Source of the DNA: Streptomyces sp. RPA4-2
GTDB taxonomy: Bacteria; Actinomycetota; Actinomycetes; Streptomycetales; Streptomycetaceae
Direction: 5' to 3'
DNA length: 64,000 bases
NCBI RefSeq assembly: GCF_012273515.2
Contig: NZ_CP050975.2
Location: forward strand, 5,270,001 to 5,334,000
Each line of letters starts with the position of its first letter. Position 1 is the first letter of the stretch. The notes under the pieces were generated by a model. The model did no database searches. It had not been told where the DNA came from and saw only the letters and a program-made list of their open reading frames with translations. The position numbers were made by a program, and so were the translations under genes. Below are positions 614 to 13,499 of the stretch, one piece after another.

Positions 614-725
614 CCATTCCGGTCCCGCATATGAACTTCCGGTGACTGTGAAGTGTGCCACTCGGATCGATCTTCGTAAATTATGATCAATATGAGCGAG
701 TTGGCGGAACCCATCCGCGCTTCGT

Positions 726-766
726 GCCCTCTCATTATGTGCCTGCTGAGAGACAGCTGAGAGGGC
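726..766 (+). promoter_or_regulatory. Nested hairpin in the leader of the deacetylase-like gene
   Basis: A perfect 9-bp outer stem (GCCCTCTCA at 726-734 pairing with TGAGAGGGC at 758-766) encloses a small inner hairpin (GCTG-AGAGA-CAGC, 745-757) that abuts the 3' arm. The gaaggag ribosome binding site begins three bases downstream. A TATGAT -10-like hexamer lies at 682-687, so the hairpin would be in the transcribed leader. A role in translation or mRNA stability is inference. Confidence 0.5.
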
Positions 767-786
767 GCGAAGGAGATGGGGACCGC

Positions 787-2106
787 ATGCGGGACATCAG
801 CCGGAGGGGAATGATCGGCCTCGGGGCGGGTGCCACGGCGGCACTCGGACTGGCGGCGTGCGGCACCGCGGACCACGACGCTTCCAACGGTGCGAGCGAT
901 TCACGGCCGGGCAAACCCGGTCGGTCGTCCCGGCCCGGCGCTCCCAAGCCCACCGCGCGCCCGATAGGCGACGGCTCCACCTCCTTCACGGGCAAGCAGC
1001 CGAAGCAGCCCAAGGCCCCCGTGCCCCTGGAGCCCGGCGAGACCCCTCCGCAGTTCGTGATCTTCTCCTGGGACGGCGCGGGGGAGGTCGGGACCGGCCT
1101 CTTCTCCCGGTTCCTGCGGCTCGCCGAGGAGCACGACGCGCACATGACCTTCTTCCTCTCCGGGCTCTATCTGCTGCCCGAGTCGAAGAAGCGCATGTAC
1201 CTGCCGCCGAACAACCCCCGCGGCGCCTCGGACATCGGCTACCTCACCGACGAGCACGTCAAGGCGACCCTCGGAGGCGTCCGGCAGGCCTGGCTCGACG
1301 GCCACGAGATCGGCACGCACTTCAACGGCCACTTCTGCTCCGGCCACGGCACCGTCGCCAACTGGACGCCGGCCCAGTGGCGCAGCGAGATAGACCAGGC
1401 CAAGTCCTTCGTCAAGGAGTGGCGGACCAACACGGGCTGGAGCGATCTGCCCTCGCTGCCGTTCGACTACGACAAGGAACTCATAGGCGGCCGGACCCCG
1501 TGTCTGCTCGGGCAGAACAACCTGCTGCCCACCGCCAAGGAACTCGGCTGGCGCTACGACGCCTCCTCGCCCGGTGGACGCCAGCGCTGGCCGCAGAAGA
1601 ACCGGGGCGTGTGGGATCTCCCACTGCAGGCCGTCCCGTTCCCGGGCCACAGCTTCGAAGTCCTCTCCATGGACTACAACATGCTCGCCAACCAGTCGGT
1701 CAACTCGACGAAGGCGCCGTCGTACAACTACCCGGGCTGGCGGAAGCAGGCCGCCGAGGCCTACATCGCCGGATTCCGGCGGGCGTACGAGTCGAACCGG
1801 GCGCCCTTCTTCATAGGCAACCACTTCGAGGAGTGGAACGGCGGCATCTACATGGACGCCGTCGAGCAGGCCTTCACGTACATCGCGCGGGAGAAGGAGA
1901 AGGGCGAGGACGTGCGGCTCGTCTCCTTCCGGCAGTTCGTGGACTGGCTGGACGTACAGCCGCCCGAGATCGTCGCCAAGCTGCAGTCCCTGGACGTGGG
2001 CCGGCGGCCGGCCGGCGGCTGGAAGACGTTCCTGGGCGACACGGACAAGGCGACCGCCGGCGCCTCCGCCGGTGCCTCGTCCAGCGCGTCGGGGAGCGCC
2101 ACCTGA
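787..2106 (+). CDS. Polysaccharide-deacetylase-like lipoprotein
   Basis: A 439-residue exported protein. The ATG at 787 follows a good ribosome binding site (gaaggagat) and begins a signal peptide with a twin-arginine-like SRRGMIG and a lipobox ending LAAC (Cys25), so it is probably a Tat-exported lipoprotein. A Pro/Lys-rich linker runs to about residue 90. The globular part resembles the NodB fold: FSWDGA (about 93-98) sits where the metal-binding TFDD motif is expected, and HFNGH (about 178-182) keeps the H-x3-H metal site. The altered first motif means catalytic deacetylation of a glycan is likely but not certain. It lies directly upstream of the cytochrome c maturation genes; a functional link is not obvious. 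Confidence 0.75.
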   Translation: MRDISRRGMIGLGAGATAALGLAACGTADHDASNGASDSRPGKPGRSSRPGAPKPTARPIGDGSTSFTGKQPKQPKAPVPLEPGETPPQFVIFSWDGAGEVGTGLFSRFLRLAEEHDAHMTFFLSGLYLLPESKKRMYLPPNNPRGASDIGYLTDEHVKATLGGVRQAWLDGHEIGTHFNGHFCSGHGTVANWTPAQWRSEIDQAKSFVKEWRTNTGWSDLPSLPFDYDKELIGGRTPCLLGQNNLLPTAKELGWRYDASSPGGRQRWPQKNRGVWDLPLQAVPFPGHSFEVLSMDYNMLANQSVNSTKAPSYNYPGWRKQAAEAYIAGFRRAYESNRAPFFIGNHFEEWNGGIYMDAVEQAFTYIAREKEKGEDVRLVSFRQFVDWLDVQPPEIVAKLQSLDVGRRPAGGWKTFLGDTDKATAGASAGASSSASGSAT

Positions 2107-3573: not shown

Positions 3574-5451
3574 ATGAGCACGACCGACACCGATACCGAC
3601 GACGGCACCGGTAGGACGGCGGCGGAACCGGTGGCCGCCAAGCGGCACATCGGGGTGAGCGCCGACGGCGAACTCGGCGAGGCCGGATCCCAGCTGTCCA
3701 CGGCGCCCGTCGACACGGCCGTGCCCGGTTCGTTCGGCGGGATGCGGGCGCCCGGCCCCATCGGGGCGCTGGCATGGACCGGCCGTGAGGCCGTCGGCTG
3801 GGCGCGCTGGTTCTGGCGGCAGCTGACCTCCATGCGGGTCGCGCTGATCCTGCTCTTCCTGCTGTCGCTCGGCGCGATCCCCGGGTCGCTGATCCCGCAG
3901 TCCGGGACCGACGCGCAGAAGGTCGCGGACTTCAAGGACGCGCACTCGCTCCTCGGTCCGTTCTACGACCGGCTGGGCCTCTTCCACGTCTACAGCTCGG
4001 TGTGGTTCTCGGCGATCTACATCCTGCTCTTCGTCTCGCTCATCGGCTGCATCGTGCCCCGCACCTGGCAGTTCGTGGGGCAGCTGCGCGGCCGTCCGCC
4101 GGGCGCGCCGAAGCGGCTGGACCGGCTGCCCGCGTACGCGACCTGGCGCACCGCCGCCGAGCCGGAGCAGGTCCGCGAGGCCGCGCTCCAGGTGCTCGGG
4201 CGGCGCCGCTTCCGGGCGCACGTGGAGAAGGACGCCGTCGCCGCCGAGAAGGGCTACCTCCGCGAGACCGGCAACCTGCTCTTCCACATCGCGCTCGTCG
4301 TGATGCTCGTCTCCTTCGCCTGGGGCCAGCTCTTCAAGTCCGAGGGCAACAAGCTGATCGTCGAGGGCGACGGCTTCTCCAACACGCTCTCGCAGTACGA
4401 CGACTTCAAGTCGGGCAACCTCTTCGGCAGCGACGACCTCACGCCGTTCAGCTTCGACCTGAAGAAGTTCACGGGTACCTACGAGCGGACCGGTCCCAAC
4501 AAGGGCACCCCGCGGACCTACCAGGCGGCCGTCACCTACAGCGTGGGCGCCTACGGCAAGGACCGGAAGACCCTCGTCAAGGTCAACGAGCCGCTGAGGA
4601 TCGGTGACTCGAAGGTCTACCTCACCGCCCACGGCTACGCGCCCGTCGTCACGGTCCGCAACGGCAGGGGCGACGTCGTCTTCCACGACGCCGTGCCGAT
4701 GCTGCCGCTCGACCCGAACGTCACCTCGCAGGGCGCGATCAAGGTCATGGACGGCTACCGGAACGGGCGGGGGCAGCCCGAGCAGCTCGGCTTCTCCGGC
4801 GTCTTCGTGCCGACCTTCGCGGGCGCGGGCAAGGGCACGATGTTCTCGCAGTTCCCCGCGCTCGACTTCCCCGTGCTCGCGCTGACCGGATACCACGGCA
4901 GCCTGGGGGTCGACGCGGGCATCCCGCAGAACGTGTACCAGCTCGACAAGTCCAAGATGACGCAGTTCAAGGACGCGAAGGGCAACCCCCTCGCGGCGCG
5001 TCTGCTGCCCGGCGAGACCATGAAGCTGCCCGACGGTGCCGGCTCGATCACCTTCGACAAGGGCGTCAAGCAGTGGGCGAACTTCCAGGTCACCCAGCAG
5101 CCCGGCAGTGACTGGGCGCTCGCCGGAGCCTTCACCGCGATCTTCGGTCTCGCCGGCTCGCTCTTCATCCAGCGCCGCCGGGTCTGGGTGCGCGCCACCA
5201 CGGGCGCGGACGGTGTGACCGTCGTGGAGATGGCGGGCCTGGGCCGCAGCGAGTCCGCGAAGCTTCCCGAGGAGCTCGGCGACCTGGCCGCGCTCGTGCA
5301 CGAACAGGCACCCACCAAGACCGACGAACCCGACGCGGGGACGGACCCCGACGCCGGGACGGACCCCGCAGCCGAGCCGGACGCCGATTCGGACACCACC
5401 GACCCCGACCCTCACGCCGTACCTGCCGCCGAAGGGGCTGAGAAGCAGTGA
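3574..5451 (+). CDS. resB: Cytochrome c biogenesis protein ResB (Ccs1)
   Basis: A 625-residue protein of the ResB/Ccs1 family, partner of CcsB in the system II haem-delivery and cytochrome c synthetase complex. The first ~85 residues are hydrophilic, followed by membrane segments (for example VALILLFLLSLGAIPGSLIP), a long extracytoplasmic domain and a last membrane segment near residue 520. The C-terminal ~60 residues are a low-complexity Asp/Pro/Thr tail with repeated DAGTDP units, probably disordered. The stop overlaps the GTG of ccsB by four bases. Confidence 0.93.
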   Translation: MSTTDTDTDDGTGRTAAEPVAAKRHIGVSADGELGEAGSQLSTAPVDTAVPGSFGGMRAPGPIGALAWTGREAVGWARWFWRQLTSMRVALILLFLLSLGAIPGSLIPQSGTDAQKVADFKDAHSLLGPFYDRLGLFHVYSSVWFSAIYILLFVSLIGCIVPRTWQFVGQLRGRPPGAPKRLDRLPAYATWRTAAEPEQVREAALQVLGRRRFRAHVEKDAVAAEKGYLRETGNLLFHIALVVMLVSFAWGQLFKSEGNKLIVEGDGFSNTLSQYDDFKSGNLFGSDDLTPFSFDLKKFTGTYERTGPNKGTPRTYQAAVTYSVGAYGKDRKTLVKVNEPLRIGDSKVYLTAHGYAPVVTVRNGRGDVVFHDAVPMLPLDPNVTSQGAIKVMDGYRNGRGQPEQLGFSGVFVPTFAGAGKGTMFSQFPALDFPVLALTGYHGSLGVDAGIPQNVYQLDKSKMTQFKDAKGNPLAARLLPGETMKLPDGAGSITFDKGVKQWANFQVTQQPGSDWALAGAFTAIFGLAGSLFIQRRRVWVRATTGADGVTVVEMAGLGRSESAKLPEELGDLAALVHEQAPTKTDEPDAGTDPDAGTDPAAEPDADSDTTDPDPHAVPAAEGAEKQ

Positions 5452-6524
5452 CTCTCGCCACCGCAACCAACGAACACCTCGCCAACATCAGCAACACGCT
5501 GGTCTACTCCTCGATGGCCGTCTACACCCTGGCCTTCTTCGCGTACATCGCCGAGTGGATCTTCGGCAGCCGCAGCAAGGTCGCCCGCACGGCGGCCGCG
5601 CTCACCTCCGGCACCGAGGCGGCGACTCCCGCGGTCACCGTGAAGTCGGCGGGCGGTACCGCCGTCCTGGAGCGGCCGCAGGTCGTCACCCGGTCCGCGG
5701 CCGGCGCCCGTGACGTGCCCGACGGGCCGGGGGCCCACGGCGGGGACGAACAGGGCGACCTGTACGGCCGCATCGCGGTGTCCCTCACCGTGGTCGCCTG
5801 GGCCGTCGAGACGGCCGGCGTGGTGGCCCGCGCCCTGTCGGTGCAGCGTGCGCCGTGGGGCAACATGTACGAGTTCAGCGTCACCTTCTCGACCGTCGCC
5901 GTGACCGTGTACCTGGCGTTCCTGCTGGCGAGGAAGGACATCCGCTGGCTGGGTCTGCCGCTGGTCACCACGGTCCTGCTCGACCTCGGTCTCGCCGTCA
6001 CGGTGCTGTACACCGCCAGCGACCAGCTGGTTCCCGCACTCCACTCGTACTGGCTCTACATCCACGTCTCGACCGCGATCCTCTGCGGCGCGATCTTCTA
6101 CGTGGGCGCGGTCGGCACCCTGCTGTACCTCTTCAAGGACTCCTACGAGAACAAGCTGGCGGGCGGTGGCAGGCCCGGGAGCTTCGCCACCTCCGTCATG
6201 GAGCGGCTGCCCTCCTCGGCCTCCCTCGACAAGTTCTCCTACCGGGTCAACGCCGCCGTCTTCCCGCTGTGGACCTTCACGATCATCGCGGGCGCGATCT
6301 GGGCCGGTGACGCGTGGGGCCGCTACTGGGGCTGGGACCCGAAGGAGACCTGGGCGTTCATCACCTGGGTCGCCTACGCCTGCTATCTGCACGCCCGTGC
6401 CACGGCCGGCTGGAAGGGCCGCAAGGCCGCGTACATCGCGCTCATCGCCTTCGCGTGTTTCCTCTTCAACTACTACGGCGTCAACATCTTCGTCTCCGGC
6501 AAGCACTCCTACGCCGGGGTCTGA
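5448..6524 (+). CDS. ccsB: Cytochrome c biogenesis protein CcsB/ResC (haem handling)
   Basis: A 358-residue polytopic protein. The diagnostic haem-handling signature is present as WGWDPKETWAF at about residues 294-304, followed by membrane segments. With ResB it presents haem to reduced apocytochrome c outside the membrane. It has a long hydrophilic loop (about residues 40-105) after the first membrane segment. It starts at a GTG overlapping the resB stop and is the last gene of the operon. Confidence 0.93.
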   Translation: MTLATATNEHLANISNTLVYSSMAVYTLAFFAYIAEWIFGSRSKVARTAAALTSGTEAATPAVTVKSAGGTAVLERPQVVTRSAAGARDVPDGPGAHGGDEQGDLYGRIAVSLTVVAWAVETAGVVARALSVQRAPWGNMYEFSVTFSTVAVTVYLAFLLARKDIRWLGLPLVTTVLLDLGLAVTVLYTASDQLVPALHSYWLYIHVSTAILCGAIFYVGAVGTLLYLFKDSYENKLAGGGRPGSFATSVMERLPSSASLDKFSYRVNAAVFPLWTFTIIAGAIWAGDAWGRYWGWDPKETWAFITWVAYACYLHARATAGWKGRKAAYIALIAFACFLFNYYGVNIFVSGKHSYAGV

Positions 6525-6582
6525 CGCCCGCACCGGCGTGACCACGGGTGCGGAACCCTCCGCCCCGGGCCACGCTGGTGTC

Positions 6583-6996
6583 ATGACCGGAACCATCGAA
6601 GAGGGAGCCGTCGAGACCCGGGGGGACACGCAGGTACGGCACTGGCTGCTGCGTCTTCCCCAGCCTGTGGACGAGGTCTGGGCGGCGATGGCCACCCCCG
6701 AGGGACTCGTGGGGTGGCTGGCGCGTGCGGAGGTGTTCGAGCCGCGCCTCGGCGGGGCGGTCGACCTGCGTGGACTGGGCACCGGCCGGATCACCGCCTG
6801 GGACGTCGAGCGGGTCGCCGAGTACACGATGGAGAGCCGCGGCCGGGTCCGGTTCCACCTGGAGCCCGCGCCGCCGGACGACACCGGCACCGGCACCGGC
6901 ACCACCGTCCGGTTCACCCACGAGTACGAGGGCGACTACGAGCCCGGCCCCTGGCGGATCCGCTTCGAACGGCTGCTGACCCTGCTGACGGACTAG
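6583..6996 (+). CDS. SRPBCC/START-like domain protein (AHSA1-type)
   Basis: A 137-residue protein with the SRPBCC helix-grip pattern seen in AHSA1-like proteins: an opening strand (HWLLRLPQPVDEVWAAMATPE), GWLARAEVFEPRLGGAVDL, and late strands containing TTVRFTHEYEGDY. These domains bind hydrophobic ligands or act as co-chaperone modules; no ligand can be inferred. The ATG at 6583 was chosen because the homologous fold begins a few residues later; the frame is open further upstream but only through the ccsB end. It converges with the next minus-strand gene with 12 bases between the stops. Confidence 0.75.
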   Translation: MTGTIEEGAVETRGDTQVRHWLLRLPQPVDEVWAAMATPEGLVGWLARAEVFEPRLGGAVDLRGLGTGRITAWDVERVAEYTMESRGRVRFHLEPAPPDDTGTGTGTTVRFTHEYEGDYEPGPWRIRFERLLTLLTD

Positions 6997-7008: not shown

Positions 7009-8556
7009 CTACGACGGCGGCAGGCACTCCTTCGCCGGCGGCTTCCCCTCCGGCCAGGCGATCTTCACGAAGCGGGCGCGGGACTCGGGGGTCAGCTGCA
7101 CGATCGGTACGGCCTTGTCGTACGGATTGCCGTGGGCGTCCAGGCAGATCCACCCGCTCGCCCCGTTCACCCGCAGCTCCCTGCCCTTGACCTGCGGCCA
7201 CTGGAGCCCCACGTCCGCCAGGGCCGGGATCCTCCCGGTCGGTGACGCCCCGCGAATGCCTCGCACGGCGAGCCGCATGGCGTCATGGGCGATGATCAGC
7301 TGGCCGTCGTCCAGGGCGATCGGGCCGACGGGACCGACCGGTTCCTTCGTGGCGCCGGCCAGCAGCGCCCGGAGCGCCTTCGCGTCGGCCGCGGCGCCCC
7401 CGGTTTTCGCGGAGTCCTTCAGCCAGGCGTCCGGGTGGGCGAGGGCCGTGTAGCGCACGGTCAGCAGCGGGTCCTTGAGGGCGGCCGGGTCGAGGTCCTT
7501 GTCACCGGCGAGGTAGGAACCCTCGTCGCCGGTGAGCACGGTGAACCGGCGGTCGTGGCAGCCGCGTTGGCCCAGCGTGTTGATGAACTGGCGCAGTTGG
7601 GTGTGGCGCCCCGCGAAGAGGACGGTGTCGGTACTGGCCGGCGTGTTGCACAGGATGTTGGTGATCTGCGCGAAGACGTTGGAGGTGCTGCCCTCCTTGC
7701 TGCGGTCGGCGGGCGGCGTGAAGGGCTGGGCCTCGTAGCGCGAGCCTGTGAGCATCTTCTCGAAGGACCCCTGCAGCGTGCGCGTGTACGGGTCGCCCGT
7801 CCGGTCGTAGACCAGGAAGGCGTTGACGGCCGAGACCTTGGCGAACGAGGCGAGGGCGCGGGCCTCGTCCGTGTTGGTGGGGGAGACGCGGGCGAGGCCG
7901 GGGAAGGGGTCCTTCCCGTGCTGCCCGTTGGCGAGGTCGTCGGCGGTGATCGAGCTCCCTATCACCGGGATGCCCCGGGCGGTCAGCTCCGCGACGGCCT
8001 TCTTGTTGTTGTCGGTGCTCTGTCCGACCCCGGTCACCGCGCGCAGCCGGTCGGGTCCCTTCGCCATGCTCTCCAGCCGGTCGACCGTGTACTGCCAGTA
8101 CGTACCGGTGGAACCGGGGTTGGCCAGCACCAGGCGGATCTTCGGCTTCAGCCCGGTGGTGTCGTGGTTGGCCTGGTACTGGGCCAGGTAGGCGCCCTGG
8201 AGTTCGTGCAGCACGTCGCCCAGGTTGTCGGCGTCGGTCGCCGTGAACGGCTCCAGCAGGGCGACGGTGACGTAACTGCCGGGCTCCAGACGGGCGTTCT
8301 CCCGGTGGATCGCCCGTACGGTGTCGGCGAACTGCGGCCGGCCGAAGGCGTACGTGGACCACGAGACGCCCACACATTCGCCGCTGCCCTCGGGCTGGAC
8401 GACGCCCGGTGCGCAGGACCGATTCTCCTTGGTGGCCGTCATGCCGCCCCAGACGCCGAGGCCCGTGAGGGCGGCGGCCAGCGTCAGCGCCACGTACCGG
8501 CGGAAACGGATCTCCCAGACGTCCTCGCGCAGCCACCGCCACCAACGCGCCATCAT
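7009..8556 (-). CDS. Membrane-anchored periplasmic-binding-protein-type receptor, function unknown
   Basis: A 515-residue protein (ATG at 8556; a second ATG follows directly at 8553). A short basic cytoplasmic tail (MMARWWRWLREDVW) is followed by one transmembrane helix (about 21-38) and a large extracytoplasmic region resembling type 1 periplasmic binding proteins of branched-chain amino acid receptors: two-lobed pattern, AVTGVGQSTDNNKKAVAELT, GIPVIGSSITADD, AFLVYDRTGDPYTRTLQGSF. No permease or ABC ATPase genes are nearby, so ordinary transport is doubtful. It lies 19 bases downstream of the STAND-like P-loop gene on the same strand, suggesting a sensor/effector pair. That functional reading is inference. 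Confidence 0.75.
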   Translation of the reverse strand: MMARWWRWLREDVWEIRFRRYVALTLAAALTGLGVWGGMTATKENRSCAPGVVQPEGSGECVGVSWSTYAFGRPQFADTVRAIHRENARLEPGSYVTVALLEPFTATDADNLGDVLHELQGAYLAQYQANHDTTGLKPKIRLVLANPGSTGTYWQYTVDRLESMAKGPDRLRAVTGVGQSTDNNKKAVAELTARGIPVIGSSITADDLANGQHGKDPFPGLARVSPTNTDEARALASFAKVSAVNAFLVYDRTGDPYTRTLQGSFEKMLTGSRYEAQPFTPPADRSKEGSTSNVFAQITNILCNTPASTDTVLFAGRHTQLRQFINTLGQRGCHDRRFTVLTGDEGSYLAGDKDLDPAALKDPLLTVRYTALAHPDAWLKDSAKTGGAAADAKALRALLAGATKEPVGPVGPIALDDGQLIIAHDAMRLAVRGIRGASPTGRIPALADVGLQWPQVKGRELRVNGASGWICLDAHGNPYDKAVPIVQLTPESRARFVKIAWPEGKPPAKECLPPS

Positions 8557-8575
8557 CGGTCCCCGTCCCCTGTCA

Positions 8576-10681
8576 TCACTGCCCCCCGGTCCCGTTCTCG
8601 TCGTCGTCCGGGACGCGCAGAGGGCGTCCGGCCAGCGCGTGCGACGGCCACTCCCGCGAGGCCCGCCACAGCAGCGGGTTGCCCGCGGGCCGAAGGTTCG
8701 ACAGCTGCTCCAGTTCGAAGCGGAGCCGCTCACCCACCTTCGGGTCCGGCAGCACCAGCGGATCGGTCAGCTGCCAGACGGCGTGCAGCAGCCGTCGTAC
8801 CCGCAGATGCAGTACGGCGTCCACGCTGTCCGGCGGCCGCTGGGCCGCGTCCGTGCGGCCGAGCGCGATCGACGCCCGGTCGTCGTGGCCGGCGGGGTTG
8901 TCGGCGTCCCGGCCGTCCGGGCCGTGCGCGTGGTAGTACGGCGCGGACGCGATGAAGAGCAGCGTCGCGAGCCAGCTCCTGGTGTCGGTGCGCGGGAAGG
9001 TGTCGCGCAGGTGCGCCACCGCGAAGTCCGCCTTGCCCAGGGCGAGTTCGTGGTGCAGCCGGTAGCGGTCCCGGTCGGGGAGTTCCCCGTCGCCGTAGTG
9101 GTCGACGAGAGTGCGGTGCACGGCCCGCCACCGCTCGTGGTCCGGGTCGTCGTGGTGCAGGCGCAGCAGGAGCAGCGCGCGCAGGAACGGATCGCCCACG
9201 AACTGCCCGGCGACCGTGGGCAGGCCCTCCCGCGCCAGCCGCTCCTCCAGGTCGAGGACGCCCGAGGCGCCGAAGTCGTCCGGGAGCTGGACCTCCGCGA
9301 GGGCGCACGCCGAGTCGCGGTCGTGGGCGGCGGCGAGCACGGTCAGCTCGTCGAGCCGGCCGCCGGGCACCAGCCGGTCCAGCAGTTCCAGATAGGTGGG
9401 GCGACCGTCGTGGTCCTCGTGGACGACGACGTCCGCGGTGAGCAACGGGCCCAGCGAGGTGGCTCCGCGGGGCAGGTTCTGCCGGGCGGACTCCGCGAGC
9501 AGGGTCACGCCGAGCGGGCTGCCGCCGGTCAGCCGGTGGGTCGCGTGCGGCAGGTGCGGCGGCACGTCCAGGCCCTGGGCGGTGCCGCCCAGCAGGTGCA
9601 GGGTGTCGTCCGGGGTCAGTGGCGGCAGCGAGACGAGCAGTGCCCGCGAGGACGGCGAGGTACCCGGCTCCCAGCCGGTGTGCCGGATCACCTCGGGGAG
9701 GGTGCGCCGGCCCGCGTTGCGCAGCGCCGGGTGGGTGTCCCCGCGCAGGGCGGCGAAGAAGACGACCTGGTCGGCGATGCCGTCGGCGCGGTCGCGCAGC
9801 ACGGGTTCCAGCAGGCCGAGGCCGGCCGGCTCCCGCATGTTGTCGATCAGTACGACCGGGCGGCCCAGCCGGTGCGAGCGCTGCATGACCCCCGCGTACG
9901 CGTCGTCGAGATCGGCCAGCAGGGCCCGGACGAGATGGCGTTCGGCGTGCGTGCGGGAGTCGCCGCCGGCGCGGAAGTGCGCGGAGAGCAGGATCAGTCC
10001 GAGCTTGGCGTTGCCGCCCGCGTTCGGATAGTCGCGGTACCAGGTGGCGGCCCTGCGCAGTCTGCGGTGGGTGGGGGCGATCCCCTCGGCGAAGGCCTCC
10101 AGGGTCGCCTCGATGATCGGCTCCACCACCGGGCCCGTACTGCTCATCGAGGCGATGAGCTTGGCGACGACCTTGCTCACCCAGCGGCCCGCGAAGCCCG
10201 ACAGCCGTGAGCCCGTCTCGTTCAGGAGCAGGATGCGCTCCGCCTCCTGCCGGATGCGCGGCACGTCGCGGTCGCTCCAGCCGCCCGCCGCCACCGCGAG
10301 CAGCCCGGAGGCCAGCCGCGGGAAGCCGATCCGTCCGGCGCCGGTCACCGGCTCGGCGAGCTGCTCGGCGATCGTGGTGAGCGCCTGCCCGACCGGTGAC
10401 CAGGACTCCGCGGGCCGCTCGGGCGCGGGAGCGGTGAACTGGCGGTCCTCGCCGTCGACGAGCGCGACCGGCGTATGGCCGCGGTAGGCGTCCCGCAGCT
10501 CGCGCAGCACCGCGCTCCTGCCCAGGCCCCGGCCGCCCGTGAACACCACGAAGGGCAGTTCCTTCGCATGTTCGACGGGGGCCGAGCGCAGTTGGTACGG
10601 GCGCAGCCCGACGAGACGTGAAGCGAGACCGGGCGGGTCGGTGTCGAACAACGCCCCGCGTCCGTGCAGCCCTCTGTGCAC
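8576..10681 (-). CDS. STAND-like P-loop NTPase-family protein with degenerate Walker A
   Basis: A 701-residue soluble protein starting with GTG at 10681 behind a GGGGGAG ribosome binding site. A P-loop-like segment GGRGLGRSA (about 49-57) has arginine where the Walker A lysine is expected. A Walker B-like RPVVLIDNM follows (about 274-282) with Asn after the Asp, then a VVFFAALRGD strand (sensor-1-like) and LTGGSPLGVTLL (about 384-394), which resembles the GxP motif of STAND ATPases. The C-terminal ~300 residues look helical, compatible with a repeat or sensor domain. It is upstream of and probably co-transcribed with the periplasmic-receptor gene. I do not recognise a named family; defence, signalling or assembly roles are all possible. 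Confidence 0.7.
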   Translation of the reverse strand: MHRGLHGRGALFDTDPPGLASRLVGLRPYQLRSAPVEHAKELPFVVFTGGRGLGRSAVLRELRDAYRGHTPVALVDGEDRQFTAPAPERPAESWSPVGQALTTIAEQLAEPVTGAGRIGFPRLASGLLAVAAGGWSDRDVPRIRQEAERILLLNETGSRLSGFAGRWVSKVVAKLIASMSSTGPVVEPIIEATLEAFAEGIAPTHRRLRRAATWYRDYPNAGGNAKLGLILLSAHFRAGGDSRTHAERHLVRALLADLDDAYAGVMQRSHRLGRPVVLIDNMREPAGLGLLEPVLRDRADGIADQVVFFAALRGDTHPALRNAGRRTLPEVIRHTGWEPGTSPSSRALLVSLPPLTPDDTLHLLGGTAQGLDVPPHLPHATHRLTGGSPLGVTLLAESARQNLPRGATSLGPLLTADVVVHEDHDGRPTYLELLDRLVPGGRLDELTVLAAAHDRDSACALAEVQLPDDFGASGVLDLEERLAREGLPTVAGQFVGDPFLRALLLLRLHHDDPDHERWRAVHRTLVDHYGDGELPDRDRYRLHHELALGKADFAVAHLRDTFPRTDTRSWLATLLFIASAPYYHAHGPDGRDADNPAGHDDRASIALGRTDAAQRPPDSVDAVLHLRVRRLLHAVWQLTDPLVLPDPKVGERLRFELEQLSNLRPAGNPLLWRASREWPSHALAGRPLRVPDDDENGTGGQ

Positions 10682-10822
10682 CGCATCTCCCCCTGGCGCG
10701 GTCCGGTCCTGCCTGTGCTGCTGTGAGGTGTATCAATACCAGTGTAAAAAGGGGGAGTTGCTTCGGACTAGGGTGTGTGATGTCCGTTTGGTTACGGAAT
10801 TCGTCCGCATCCTTTCCGGCGG

Positions 10823-12386: not shown

Positions 12387-13499
12387 TCAGCGGCAGTGGC
12401 GCGCGTACTGCCGGGCCAGCGCGCGGAAGGACTCCTTCGGCTCCCAGTGCCATCCGGCGGCCTCCGGAGCGCCGGGCCGACGGTCCTCGACCGCCTTGAC
12501 GAGGGAGTAGCTCGCCGTGTCGAGGTCGTGGCGCGGATCGCGGGGGCGGTGCGGGGCGTCCGGGGTGACGAAGGTGTACGCCATCGCCGAGTACAGGCCC
12601 ATCGACTCGAACACCGACAGCACGTCCGTCAGATACGCGGCCTGCGCGCGCTCGCTGCGGACGACGCCCTCCTTGATCTCCGGCGGCTCCTTGCCGTAGT
12701 CGACGACGTCCCAGCCCATGCCGCCGCGCTCCGGGGCGCCCTCGAAGGTGCAGCAGCCGAACTCCATGACGGCGACGGGCTTCCCGAACCGGGTGTACCG
12801 GGCGAGATCGCGGACGTAGGCGTCCCGGTGCCGGAAGAACCCGTAGTAGTCGAGGCCGACGAGATCGAAGAGGCCCCAGTCGACGTCCTCGTCCTGAGCG
12901 GCGGCGTACGTCAGCCGTCCGCGGAAGACGGAGCGGCCCACGCCCGCCGCCCGCGCCGTGAAGCGGTGCAGACGCCGCGCCGTCGTCACGGGGTCGAACG
13001 TGCCGTTGAGGAGGTTCTCGACGCGCTCCTGGGCGTTGGCGCCGGGCACGATCCCGGGTACGTACAGCACGAACTCGCACCCCACGCTGAGGTGCACCCC
13101 GGCCCCCTGCCGGCGCAGCCGCTCCGCGCACCGGCCCGTCTCGGCGAGGTGGTCGAGGATGTCCCGTTCGGGCACGTCGCCCAGGGTCGGTTCGAGCCAG
13201 ACGTGCAGACCCCGCTCGGCCGCCTCGGTGGCCGTGGCGGCGAGCCGTTCGACACCGTCGCCGGTGACCTTCACGGAGTTGGCGTGCAGGTCGTGCGCGA
13301 GCGCGCGCAGATCGCCGCGCATCCGCCGGGCGCTCCACCCCGTGCCGGGCGTCTCCCCGTCCGCCACCTCGTAGACCGCGCCCCGGTAGGTCAGTTCCCG
13401 TCGGTAAGCCGTCGCCCCGGCCCGCCCCGCGGGCAGCACCGCCGCCGCCGTCCCCGCCGCGGCCATCCCCAGGAACCGTGCCCGGCTGATCCCCTGCAT
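12387..13499 (-). CDS. Secreted TIM-barrel glycoside-hydrolase-like protein
   Basis: A 370-residue protein with an N-terminal export signal (RARFLGMAAAGTAAAVLPAGRAGATA; Tat-like layout but without a true twin arginine). The rest has a (beta/alpha)8 pattern with candidate catalytic glutamates in VGCEFVLY (Glu142) and VAVMEFGCC (Glu246), plus GLHVWLEPTL and LVGLDYYGFF, as in clan GH-A-like barrels. Similar proteins are sometimes labelled abortive infection proteins in databases, which the sequence does not support. It is the first gene of a minus-strand run; 81 bases separate it from the deaminase gene, so co-transcription is possible. Confidence 0.65.
   Translation of the reverse strand: MQGISRARFLGMAAAGTAAAVLPAGRAGATAYRRELTYRGAVYEVADGETPGTGWSARRMRGDLRALAHDLHANSVKVTGDGVERLAATATEAAERGLHVWLEPTLGDVPERDILDHLAETGRCAERLRRQGAGVHLSVGCEFVLYVPGIVPGANAQERVENLLNGTFDPVTTARRLHRFTARAAGVGRSVFRGRLTYAAAQDEDVDWGLFDLVGLDYYGFFRHRDAYVRDLARYTRFGKPVAVMEFGCCTFEGAPERGGMGWDVVDYGKEPPEIKEGVVRSERAQAAYLTDVLSVFESMGLYSAMAYTFVTPDAPHRPRDPRHDLDTASYSLVKAVEDRRPGAPEAAGWHWEPKESFRALARQYARHCR

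What the first reader, a model, noticed from the sequence alone, without database searches (positions are those of the whole stretch)
7009..10681. Two-gene unit: STAND-like P-loop protein with a membrane-anchored periplasmic-binding-protein receptor
A soluble ~700-residue protein with P-loop and GxP-like STAND features sits 19 bases upstream of a one-TM protein with a type 1 periplasmic ligand-binding domain. No permease or ABC ATPase is present, so transport is unlikely. A receptor outside coupled to a STAND-type switch inside would be a new type of signalling or defence device. The features are seen; the coupling is inference.
Basis: partly seen in the sequence, partly recalled or inferred. 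Interest (0 to 1): 0.7.

Follow-up and report, generated by a model that had tools for sequence, protein, structure and literature searches.

The report
Amino-acid-type receptor with NLR-like partner
Streptomyces and some relatives carry a two-gene unit in which an outward-facing ligand-binding receptor appears to be paired with an internal switch protein shaped like animal and plant immune switches; some bacteria carry both parts fused in one protein, which makes the pairing believable, but what it controls is unknown.

Summary
In detail: gene A (8576-10681, -, 701 aa) and gene B (7009-8556, -, 515 aa), 19 nt apart. A's model best matches STAND/AP-ATPases; no N-terminal effector domain is seen, and this copy has Arg for the P-loop Lys. 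B is a membrane-anchored type 1 periplasmic-binding domain with four invariant cysteines and most of the class C receptor amino-acid motif. Of 67 B matches in 60 other genus genomes, 45 have a large gene directly 5', all 45 A homologues (median gap 4 nt); 19 are single chains: an N-half homologous, as a group, to A's NTPase core (hhalign E 1.5e-14; decoys 0.28 or more), one TM, then the B domain. ABC permeases are not associated. Fusion and coupling support one transmembrane receptor unit; contact, signal direction, ligand and output are inferred. No defence context was found. Closest print: PBP domains behind a TM in caspase/EACC1 systems (Kaur 2020). I rate it a new variant of a known kind: a Venus-flytrap receptor with a STAND-type cytoplasmic half, accessory and fast-evolving.

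The parts
8576..10681 (-). Gene A, 701 aa: STAND-type NTPase (nucleotide-binding domain, helical domain, winged-helix domain, short helical tail)
   Evidence: domain limits are my reading of the model
10514..10537 (-). P-loop of A, GGRGLGRS (residues 49-56), Arg in place of Lys
9896..10324 (-). All-helical insertion of about 140 residues between the second strand and the Walker B strand (residues 120-262), with the family motif ALLADL (L250, D257 invariant in 65)
   Evidence: limits inferred from the model
9839..9856 (-). Walker B-like VVLIDN (residues 276-281); the residue after Asp is Asn in at least 36 of 65
9515..9529 (-). GxP motif TGGSP (residues 385-389; G387 invariant, P389 in 90% or more)
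8942..9394 (-). Winged-helix region of A (about residues 430-580; conserved R501, L503, L504, W518, H522, W570, A580, P581)
   Evidence: limits approximate
7009..8556 (-). Gene B, 515 aa: short stub predicted inside, one TM helix, type 1 periplasmic-binding (Venus flytrap) domain outside
8440..8496 (-). TM helix of B (residues 21-39) after a basic stub MMARWWRWLREDVWEIRFRR; no lipobox seen
   Evidence: sequence read by eye
7027..8415 (-). Ligand-binding domain of B (about residues 48-510); C48, C61, C303, C333 invariant in 44 of 44
7786..8019 (-). Predicted amino-acid pocket: S180, T204, N228, Y257, aligned with residues that I count as Ser165, Thr188, Asp208, Tyr236 of mGlu1
10733..10760 (-). 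Promoter/operator-like element CAACTCCCCCTTTTTACACTGGTATTGA upstream of A, conserved as CAAC-N(17-23)-GTTG in orthologues

Best explanation
A and B form one transmembrane receptor unit made of two chains. Outside, B's Venus-flytrap domain closes on an amino-acid-like small molecule. Its single TM helix and short basic stub dock on the nucleotide-binding core of A inside, and ligand binding changes the NTP state or oligomerisation of A, a STAND-type switch; the winged-helix part and tail of A then act on an unidentified partner. Shown: sequence and model evidence for both folds, conserved order and tight coupling of the genes, correlated divergence, and natural fusion of an A-type core to a B-type TM-PBP. 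Inferred: physical contact, direction of signalling, amino-acid ligand, switching by NTP, the output. In the window's copy the P-loop Lys is Arg, so it may bind nucleotide without hydrolysing it, or not bind it.
Confidence: 0.62

Rival explanations
1. Inside-out: A is an ATPase or chaperone-like regulator that assembles, positions or gates B, so energy or information flows from the cell to the receptor.
For: Same conserved coupling. A shows no N-terminal effector and no long repeat sensor, and no third gene recurs widely.
Against: Family members without the P-loop Lys (6 Ala and 5 Arg of 65; no P-loop motif in 19 of 19 single chains) argue against a need for hydrolysis.
Confidence: 0.17
2. Defence or self-recognition device: B senses a phage, bacteriocin or neighbour molecule and A triggers dormancy or death, as in STAND defence proteins.
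For: Best Foldseek hit of A is Avs3; both genes have diverged more than most flanking genes (medians 67.7 and 68.2% identity to the window against 84.4-86.0 for ccdA, ccsB, oxygenase and deaminase, but 73.1 for resB); the locus is present or absent between species.
Against: Among 120 of 151 close neighbours at most 2 hit any one of the 25 PADLOC families shown (38 matched in all; the number of neighbours with any hit was not given), many of them, as I recall, kinase models; Pfam shows mixed metabolic and regulatory genes; A hits PADLOC only weakly; the pocket looks like an amino-acid pocket and is conserved.
Confidence: 0.09
3. B is an orphan ABC substrate-binding protein, as many database entries name it, and A is unrelated.
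For: Many relatives are annotated as ABC transporter or branched-chain amino acid substrate-binding protein, others as hypothetical; fold of LivK.
Against: TM anchor and no lipobox by eye; A next to B in 45 of 45; ABC permease families in 2 of 17 multi-TM neighbours scanned near 50 loci; the fusion to the A-type core.
Confidence: 0.04
4. The pair is a signalling unit whose A acts mainly on DNA through its winged helix, as a membrane-tethered or ligand-released transcription regulator.
Against: No DNA-binding family was matched by Pfam; the winged helix of STANDs is usually structural (recalled); the dyad is in only 5 of 30 non-orthologous regions.
Confidence: 0.08

Closest known systems
STAND / AP-ATPases (NLR resistosomes, CED-4, Apaf-1, Avs)
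   Same: Nucleotide-binding core, GxP motif, helical and winged-helix domains in the same order (the definition of the class is recalled)
   Different: No N-terminal effector domain, no long repeat sensor; large helical insertion before Walker B; partner receptor encoded downstream; residue after the Walker B Asp often Asn; Lys replaced by Arg here
Kaur et al. 2020 System 4 (EACC1 plus caspase protein; PMC7159879, passages and section 33 read)
   Same: Actinobacterial two-gene membrane unit; [quoted passage not shown]
   Different: There the N-part is a caspase or cyclase domain; here it is a STAND-type NTPase core, separate or fused. EACC1 was not looked for
Venus kinase receptors and class C GPCRs (PMC2680970: start of abstract and one passage seen; PMC4026697: search listing with start of abstract)
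   Same: Venus-flytrap ectodomain, for VKRs one TM and a cytoplasmic signalling domain; amino-acid motif largely shared
   Different: Cytoplasmic part is a tyrosine kinase or a G-protein coupled 7TM, not a STAND NTPase
GlnH-GlnX-PknG of Corynebacterium glutamicum (PMC9769921: abstract and outline read)
   Same: Actinobacterial binding protein for amino acids that signals inward
   Different: Lipoprotein plus a four-TM protein plus a kinase; no STAND protein in the abstract
ABC-type Leu/Ile/Val-binding proteins
   Same: Fold and part of the pocket
   Different: Here a TM anchor, no lipobox seen, no permease association, and a STAND partner or fusion

Membership tests
STAND / AP-ATPase | P-loop GxxxxGK[ST] | tested here: inconclusive
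   Not met in the window's copy (GGRGLGRS); full motif in 45 of 65 family members, Lys in 54 of 65
STAND / AP-ATPase | Walker B hhhhD with a second acidic residue | tested here: inconclusive
   First Asp present (D280 in 90% or more); the next residue is Asn in at least 36 of 65
STAND / AP-ATPase | GxP motif before the winged helix | tested here: met
   TGGSP; G387 invariant, P389 in 90% or more of 65
STAND / AP-ATPase | Fold: nucleotide-binding, helical and winged-helix domains | tested here: met
STAND / AP-ATPase | N-terminal effector domain (usual, not universal) | tested here: not met
   Only 43 residues precede the first core strand; no Pfam domain there
STAND / AP-ATPase | C-terminal repeat sensor (usual, not universal) | tested here: inconclusive
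   About 120 residues with a few helices follow the winged helix; that tail was not searched alone
Type 1 periplasmic-binding (ANF/LIVBP) domain | Sequence or fold match | tested here: met
ABC importer substrate-binding protein | Encoded with permease and ATPase | tested here: not met
   None among the ten window genes scanned; permease families in 2 of 17 multi-TM neighbours scanned (of 20 found near 50 loci)
ABC importer substrate-binding protein | Lipobox or free secretion | tested here: inconclusive
   No lipobox by eye; hydrophobic stretch conserved; its cleavage in the two-gene form cannot be excluded. In the fused forms the TM is internal
EACC1/caspase System 4 (Kaur 2020) | Caspase-superfamily domain before the TM | tested here: not met
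   No peptidase family in A or in the 8 of 19 single chains scanned; as groups the N-halves of the 19 match A
EACC1/caspase System 4 (Kaur 2020) | EACC1 gene 5' of it | not tested
   No EACC1 model was searched
Anti-phage defence system | Match to known defence proteins or defence islands | tested here: inconclusive
   PADLOC on A and B (best E 0.023), on 65 A proteins (best mad8, 3 of 65, E 3.9e-4) and on 120 of 151 close neighbours (38 families, at most 2 members each among the 25 shown; no background rate measured)
Class C type amino-acid receptor | Five-residue amino-acid motif | tested here: inconclusive
   Four positions aligned in 44 B proteins: S180 44, T204 35 T and 7 S, N228 for Asp 40, Y257 44; in 19 single chains Ser 13, Thr/Ser 19, Asp/Asn 17, Tyr 19; the counterpart of Asp318 lies outside the alignment

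The most novel reading that the evidence does not exclude
A so far undescribed class of bacterial receptor: an amino-acid-sensing Venus flytrap outside the cell gates an NLR-like STAND assembly inside, so that a STAND takes its cue from an extracellular small molecule instead of from its own repeat domain. It exists as a two-gene switch and as a fused receptor in which the NTPase core has decayed to a pseudo-NTPase adaptor. Streptomyces would use it to read extracellular amino acids or related signals during growth or development.
Probability: 0.42. Interest if true: 0.82.

Novelty: new variant of a known kind. Interest (0 to 1): 0.62.

Why it matters
STAND switches (NLRs, Apaf-1, Avs) are known mainly as sensors of things inside the cell (recalled). 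A STAND whose sensor is a membrane receptor for extracellular small molecules would join two large signalling worlds, class C-like Venus flytraps and NLR-like switches, in bacteria. The fused forms make the coupling testable now, and they suggest a path from an active NTPase to a pseudo-NTPase receptor half. Many B proteins are at present named ABC substrate-binding proteins, so that annotation is likely misleading.

Tried and rejected
ABC transport set: rejected. Chance adjacency: rejected. Single-chain forms as caspase-TM-PBP of the EACC1 kind: no peptidase family by Pfam in the 8 of 19 scanned, and as groups the N-halves match A. Defence island: not seen, but without a background rate. A conserved third gene: not found; the largest cluster among 254 neighbours spans 7 of 50 loci, and 13 neighbours lie within 60 nt on the same strand. 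Single-sequence PDB searches gave nothing for A and only designed proteins for B. The structure search with the single-chain model was filled by PBP chains, so its N-half was not tested alone. Rfam in the window: none at gathering scores. The promoter and terminator scan found nothing. The phylum sample (5 of 246 at E<=1e-8) scored only 4 candidates per genome, so absence there is weak; the class sample gave 3 of 69 at E<=1e-6. NLRs and CED-4 were taken for STANDs from recall.

Paper searches (open-access library only, no preprints) listed no paper on this pair; Kaur 2020 is the closest. Seen: PMC7159879 passages and section 33; PMC8195603 passages; PMC2680970 one passage; PMC9769921 abstract and outline. 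All other papers were seen as search listings only.

Rows dropped and mixed: from the 71 rows I left out the own genome and three rows that are second pieces of listed matches, leaving 67. 'Two-gene' means that a frame of at least 300 codons with third-position GC of 0.78 or more ends near the predicted B start. Three of the 67 are neither kind: G001:C52 (contig edge, with the end of A just before B), G008:C102 (B with about 285 extra residues, no A) and G028:C595 (short frame). Among the 45, L043 and L048 have A in two frames and L068 is cut by the contig end. The dyad pattern was chosen after seeing related sequences, so its shuffle control overstates. The nb scans used 17 of 20 multi-TM neighbours and 120 of 151 close neighbours.
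Full report
WHAT IS THERE. The window comes from a 9.86 Mb single-contig genome; the named relatives of A and B in the lists are Streptomyces or actinobacterial proteins (best 120 of 345 and of 607 listed). Gene A (8576-10681, minus, 701 aa) is followed after 19 nt by gene B (7009-8556, minus, 515 aa). Downstream lie, on the other strand, cytochrome c maturation genes (DsbD_TM, ResB, Cytochrom_C_asm) and, next to B, a 140-codon frame without a Pfam match; upstream lie a 2OG-Fe(II) oxygenase, a cytidine-deaminase-like protein, a protein without a Pfam match and a methyltransferase. No ABC component is among the ten genes scanned.

GENE B. After a basic stub of 20 residues comes one hydrophobic helix and then a type 1 periplasmic-binding domain. 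The profile of 44 B proteins finds a Leu/Ile/Val-binding protein (9.6e-10) and the ectodomain of mGluR5 (4.3e-6), each over about a quarter of the profile. Four cysteines are invariant in 44 of 44, as expected for disulfides outside the cell. Aligned with mGluR5, B carries Ser (44 of 44), Thr/Ser (42 of 44), Asn in place of Asp (40 of 44) and Tyr (44 of 44) at positions that correspond to Ser165, Thr188, Asp208 and Tyr236 of mGlu1, which bind the carboxylate and amine of glutamate (motif from PMC2680970; the step from mGluR5 to mGlu1 numbering is my own count). In the 19 single chains the Ser is kept in 13, Thr/Ser in 19, Asp/Asn in 17 and Tyr in 19. An amino-acid-like ligand is therefore likely, but this is inference.

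CONSERVED PAIR. In 61 genomes of the genus, the own one included, 49 have a B match and 30 an A match. Of 67 B matches outside the own genome, 45 have a large coding frame directly 5', and all 45 are A homologues; 30 were recognised in the first HMM round and all 45 in the second. The distance is 7 nt or less in 36 of 45, median 4, with 20 overlaps, the pattern of translational coupling. The one A match that I found without a B match or contig edge is the decayed copy in G024. A and B divergences correlate (Pearson 0.92, 0 of 999 permutations as high; Spearman 0.61; same nearest neighbour in 27 of 42), as linked genes would. Around 50 non-orthologous loci no neighbour family recurs widely; ABC permease families appear in 2 of 17 multi-TM neighbours, and ABC_tran in 3 of 120 close neighbours.

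DISTRIBUTION AND EVOLUTION. In 16 of the 60 other genus genomes the pair lies beside the cytochrome c assembly gene as in the window, in 13 of them with the oxygenase or deaminase gene also in the fetched stretch. The same holds in named species such as Streptomyces olivochromogenes and Streptomyces aureus NRRL B-1941: 16 of 20 loci found with A have B. In 20 sampled genomes without the pair there, no A, B or fused gene was found at that site; in one (L130) the deaminase gene follows some 65 nt behind the assembly gene. In S. rhizosphaerihabitans and S. dysideae the end of A and all of B are missing; S. fructofermentans has lost B but keeps an A of 695 codons; the fourth of the 20 is cut by its contig end. 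A and B (medians 67.7 and 68.2% identity to the window) have diverged more than ccdA (86.0), ccsB (84.4), the oxygenase (84.7) and the deaminase (85.2), and less clearly more than resB (73.1) (31 loci with some repeats, best matching segments). Outside the genus, the two-gene form occurs in another family of the class (L088) and fused forms in two more (L089, L110, L112). The unit is thus accessory and, in the genomes sampled, found mostly in Streptomyces.

MECHANISM. The best-supported reading is a receptor unit: ligand outside on B, one TM, A's core docked inside, and a change in A passed on through its winged helix and tail. Fold evidence, coupling and fusion are shown; contact, direction, ligand, nucleotide use and output are inferred. 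The decayed P-loops in part of the family suggest that the core can also serve as a plain adaptor. Rivals are an inside-out ATPase, a defence device, a DNA-binding regulator and an orphan transport protein; only the last is largely excluded.

KNOWN OR NEW. The nearest statement in print that I found is one sentence in Kaur et al. 2020 (PMC7159879) on TM-PBP ends in caspase proteins of a two-gene actinobacterial system. Venus kinase receptors (VFT, one TM, kinase) are the nearest by working principle, and GlnH-GlnX-PknG the nearest actinobacterial signalling through a binding protein. None of the ten paper searches listed a paper on a STAND paired with, or fused to, a periplasmic-binding receptor; subscription papers and preprints were not searched. 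Both parts are known kinds; the combination appears new, hence a new variant of a known kind.

Noticed in passing
window 10733-10760 (-) and upstream of A in orthologous loci: Conserved promoter/operator-like element, CCAACxC..CCT....TAnnCTGnnGTTGA: the dyad CAAC-N(17-23)-GTTG occurs within 150 nt of A in 25 of 36 orthologous regions (some are repeats; shuffled mean 0.32), in 5 of 30 non-orthologous ones; the window's copy has one mismatch in GTTG.
   Followed up: partly
L069 (G008:C102) 4366-6705: A B-type domain with about 285 extra N-terminal residues and no A gene in front, between two genes with one TM each; possibly a third architecture.
   Followed up: no
L018, L054, L055, L058, L059, L060: Six A proteins have GSGAS at the P-loop (Lys to Ala) while keeping their B partner, so a pseudo-NTPase seems to have arisen within the two-gene form as well.
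   Followed up: partly
L103 / L119 (Streptomyces fructofermentans): A of full length without B: a natural test of whether A is kept under selection alone.
   Followed up: no
window 12390-13499 (-) and 655-2103 (+): Two long frames near the unit without any Pfam match at E<=1e-5.
   Followed up: no
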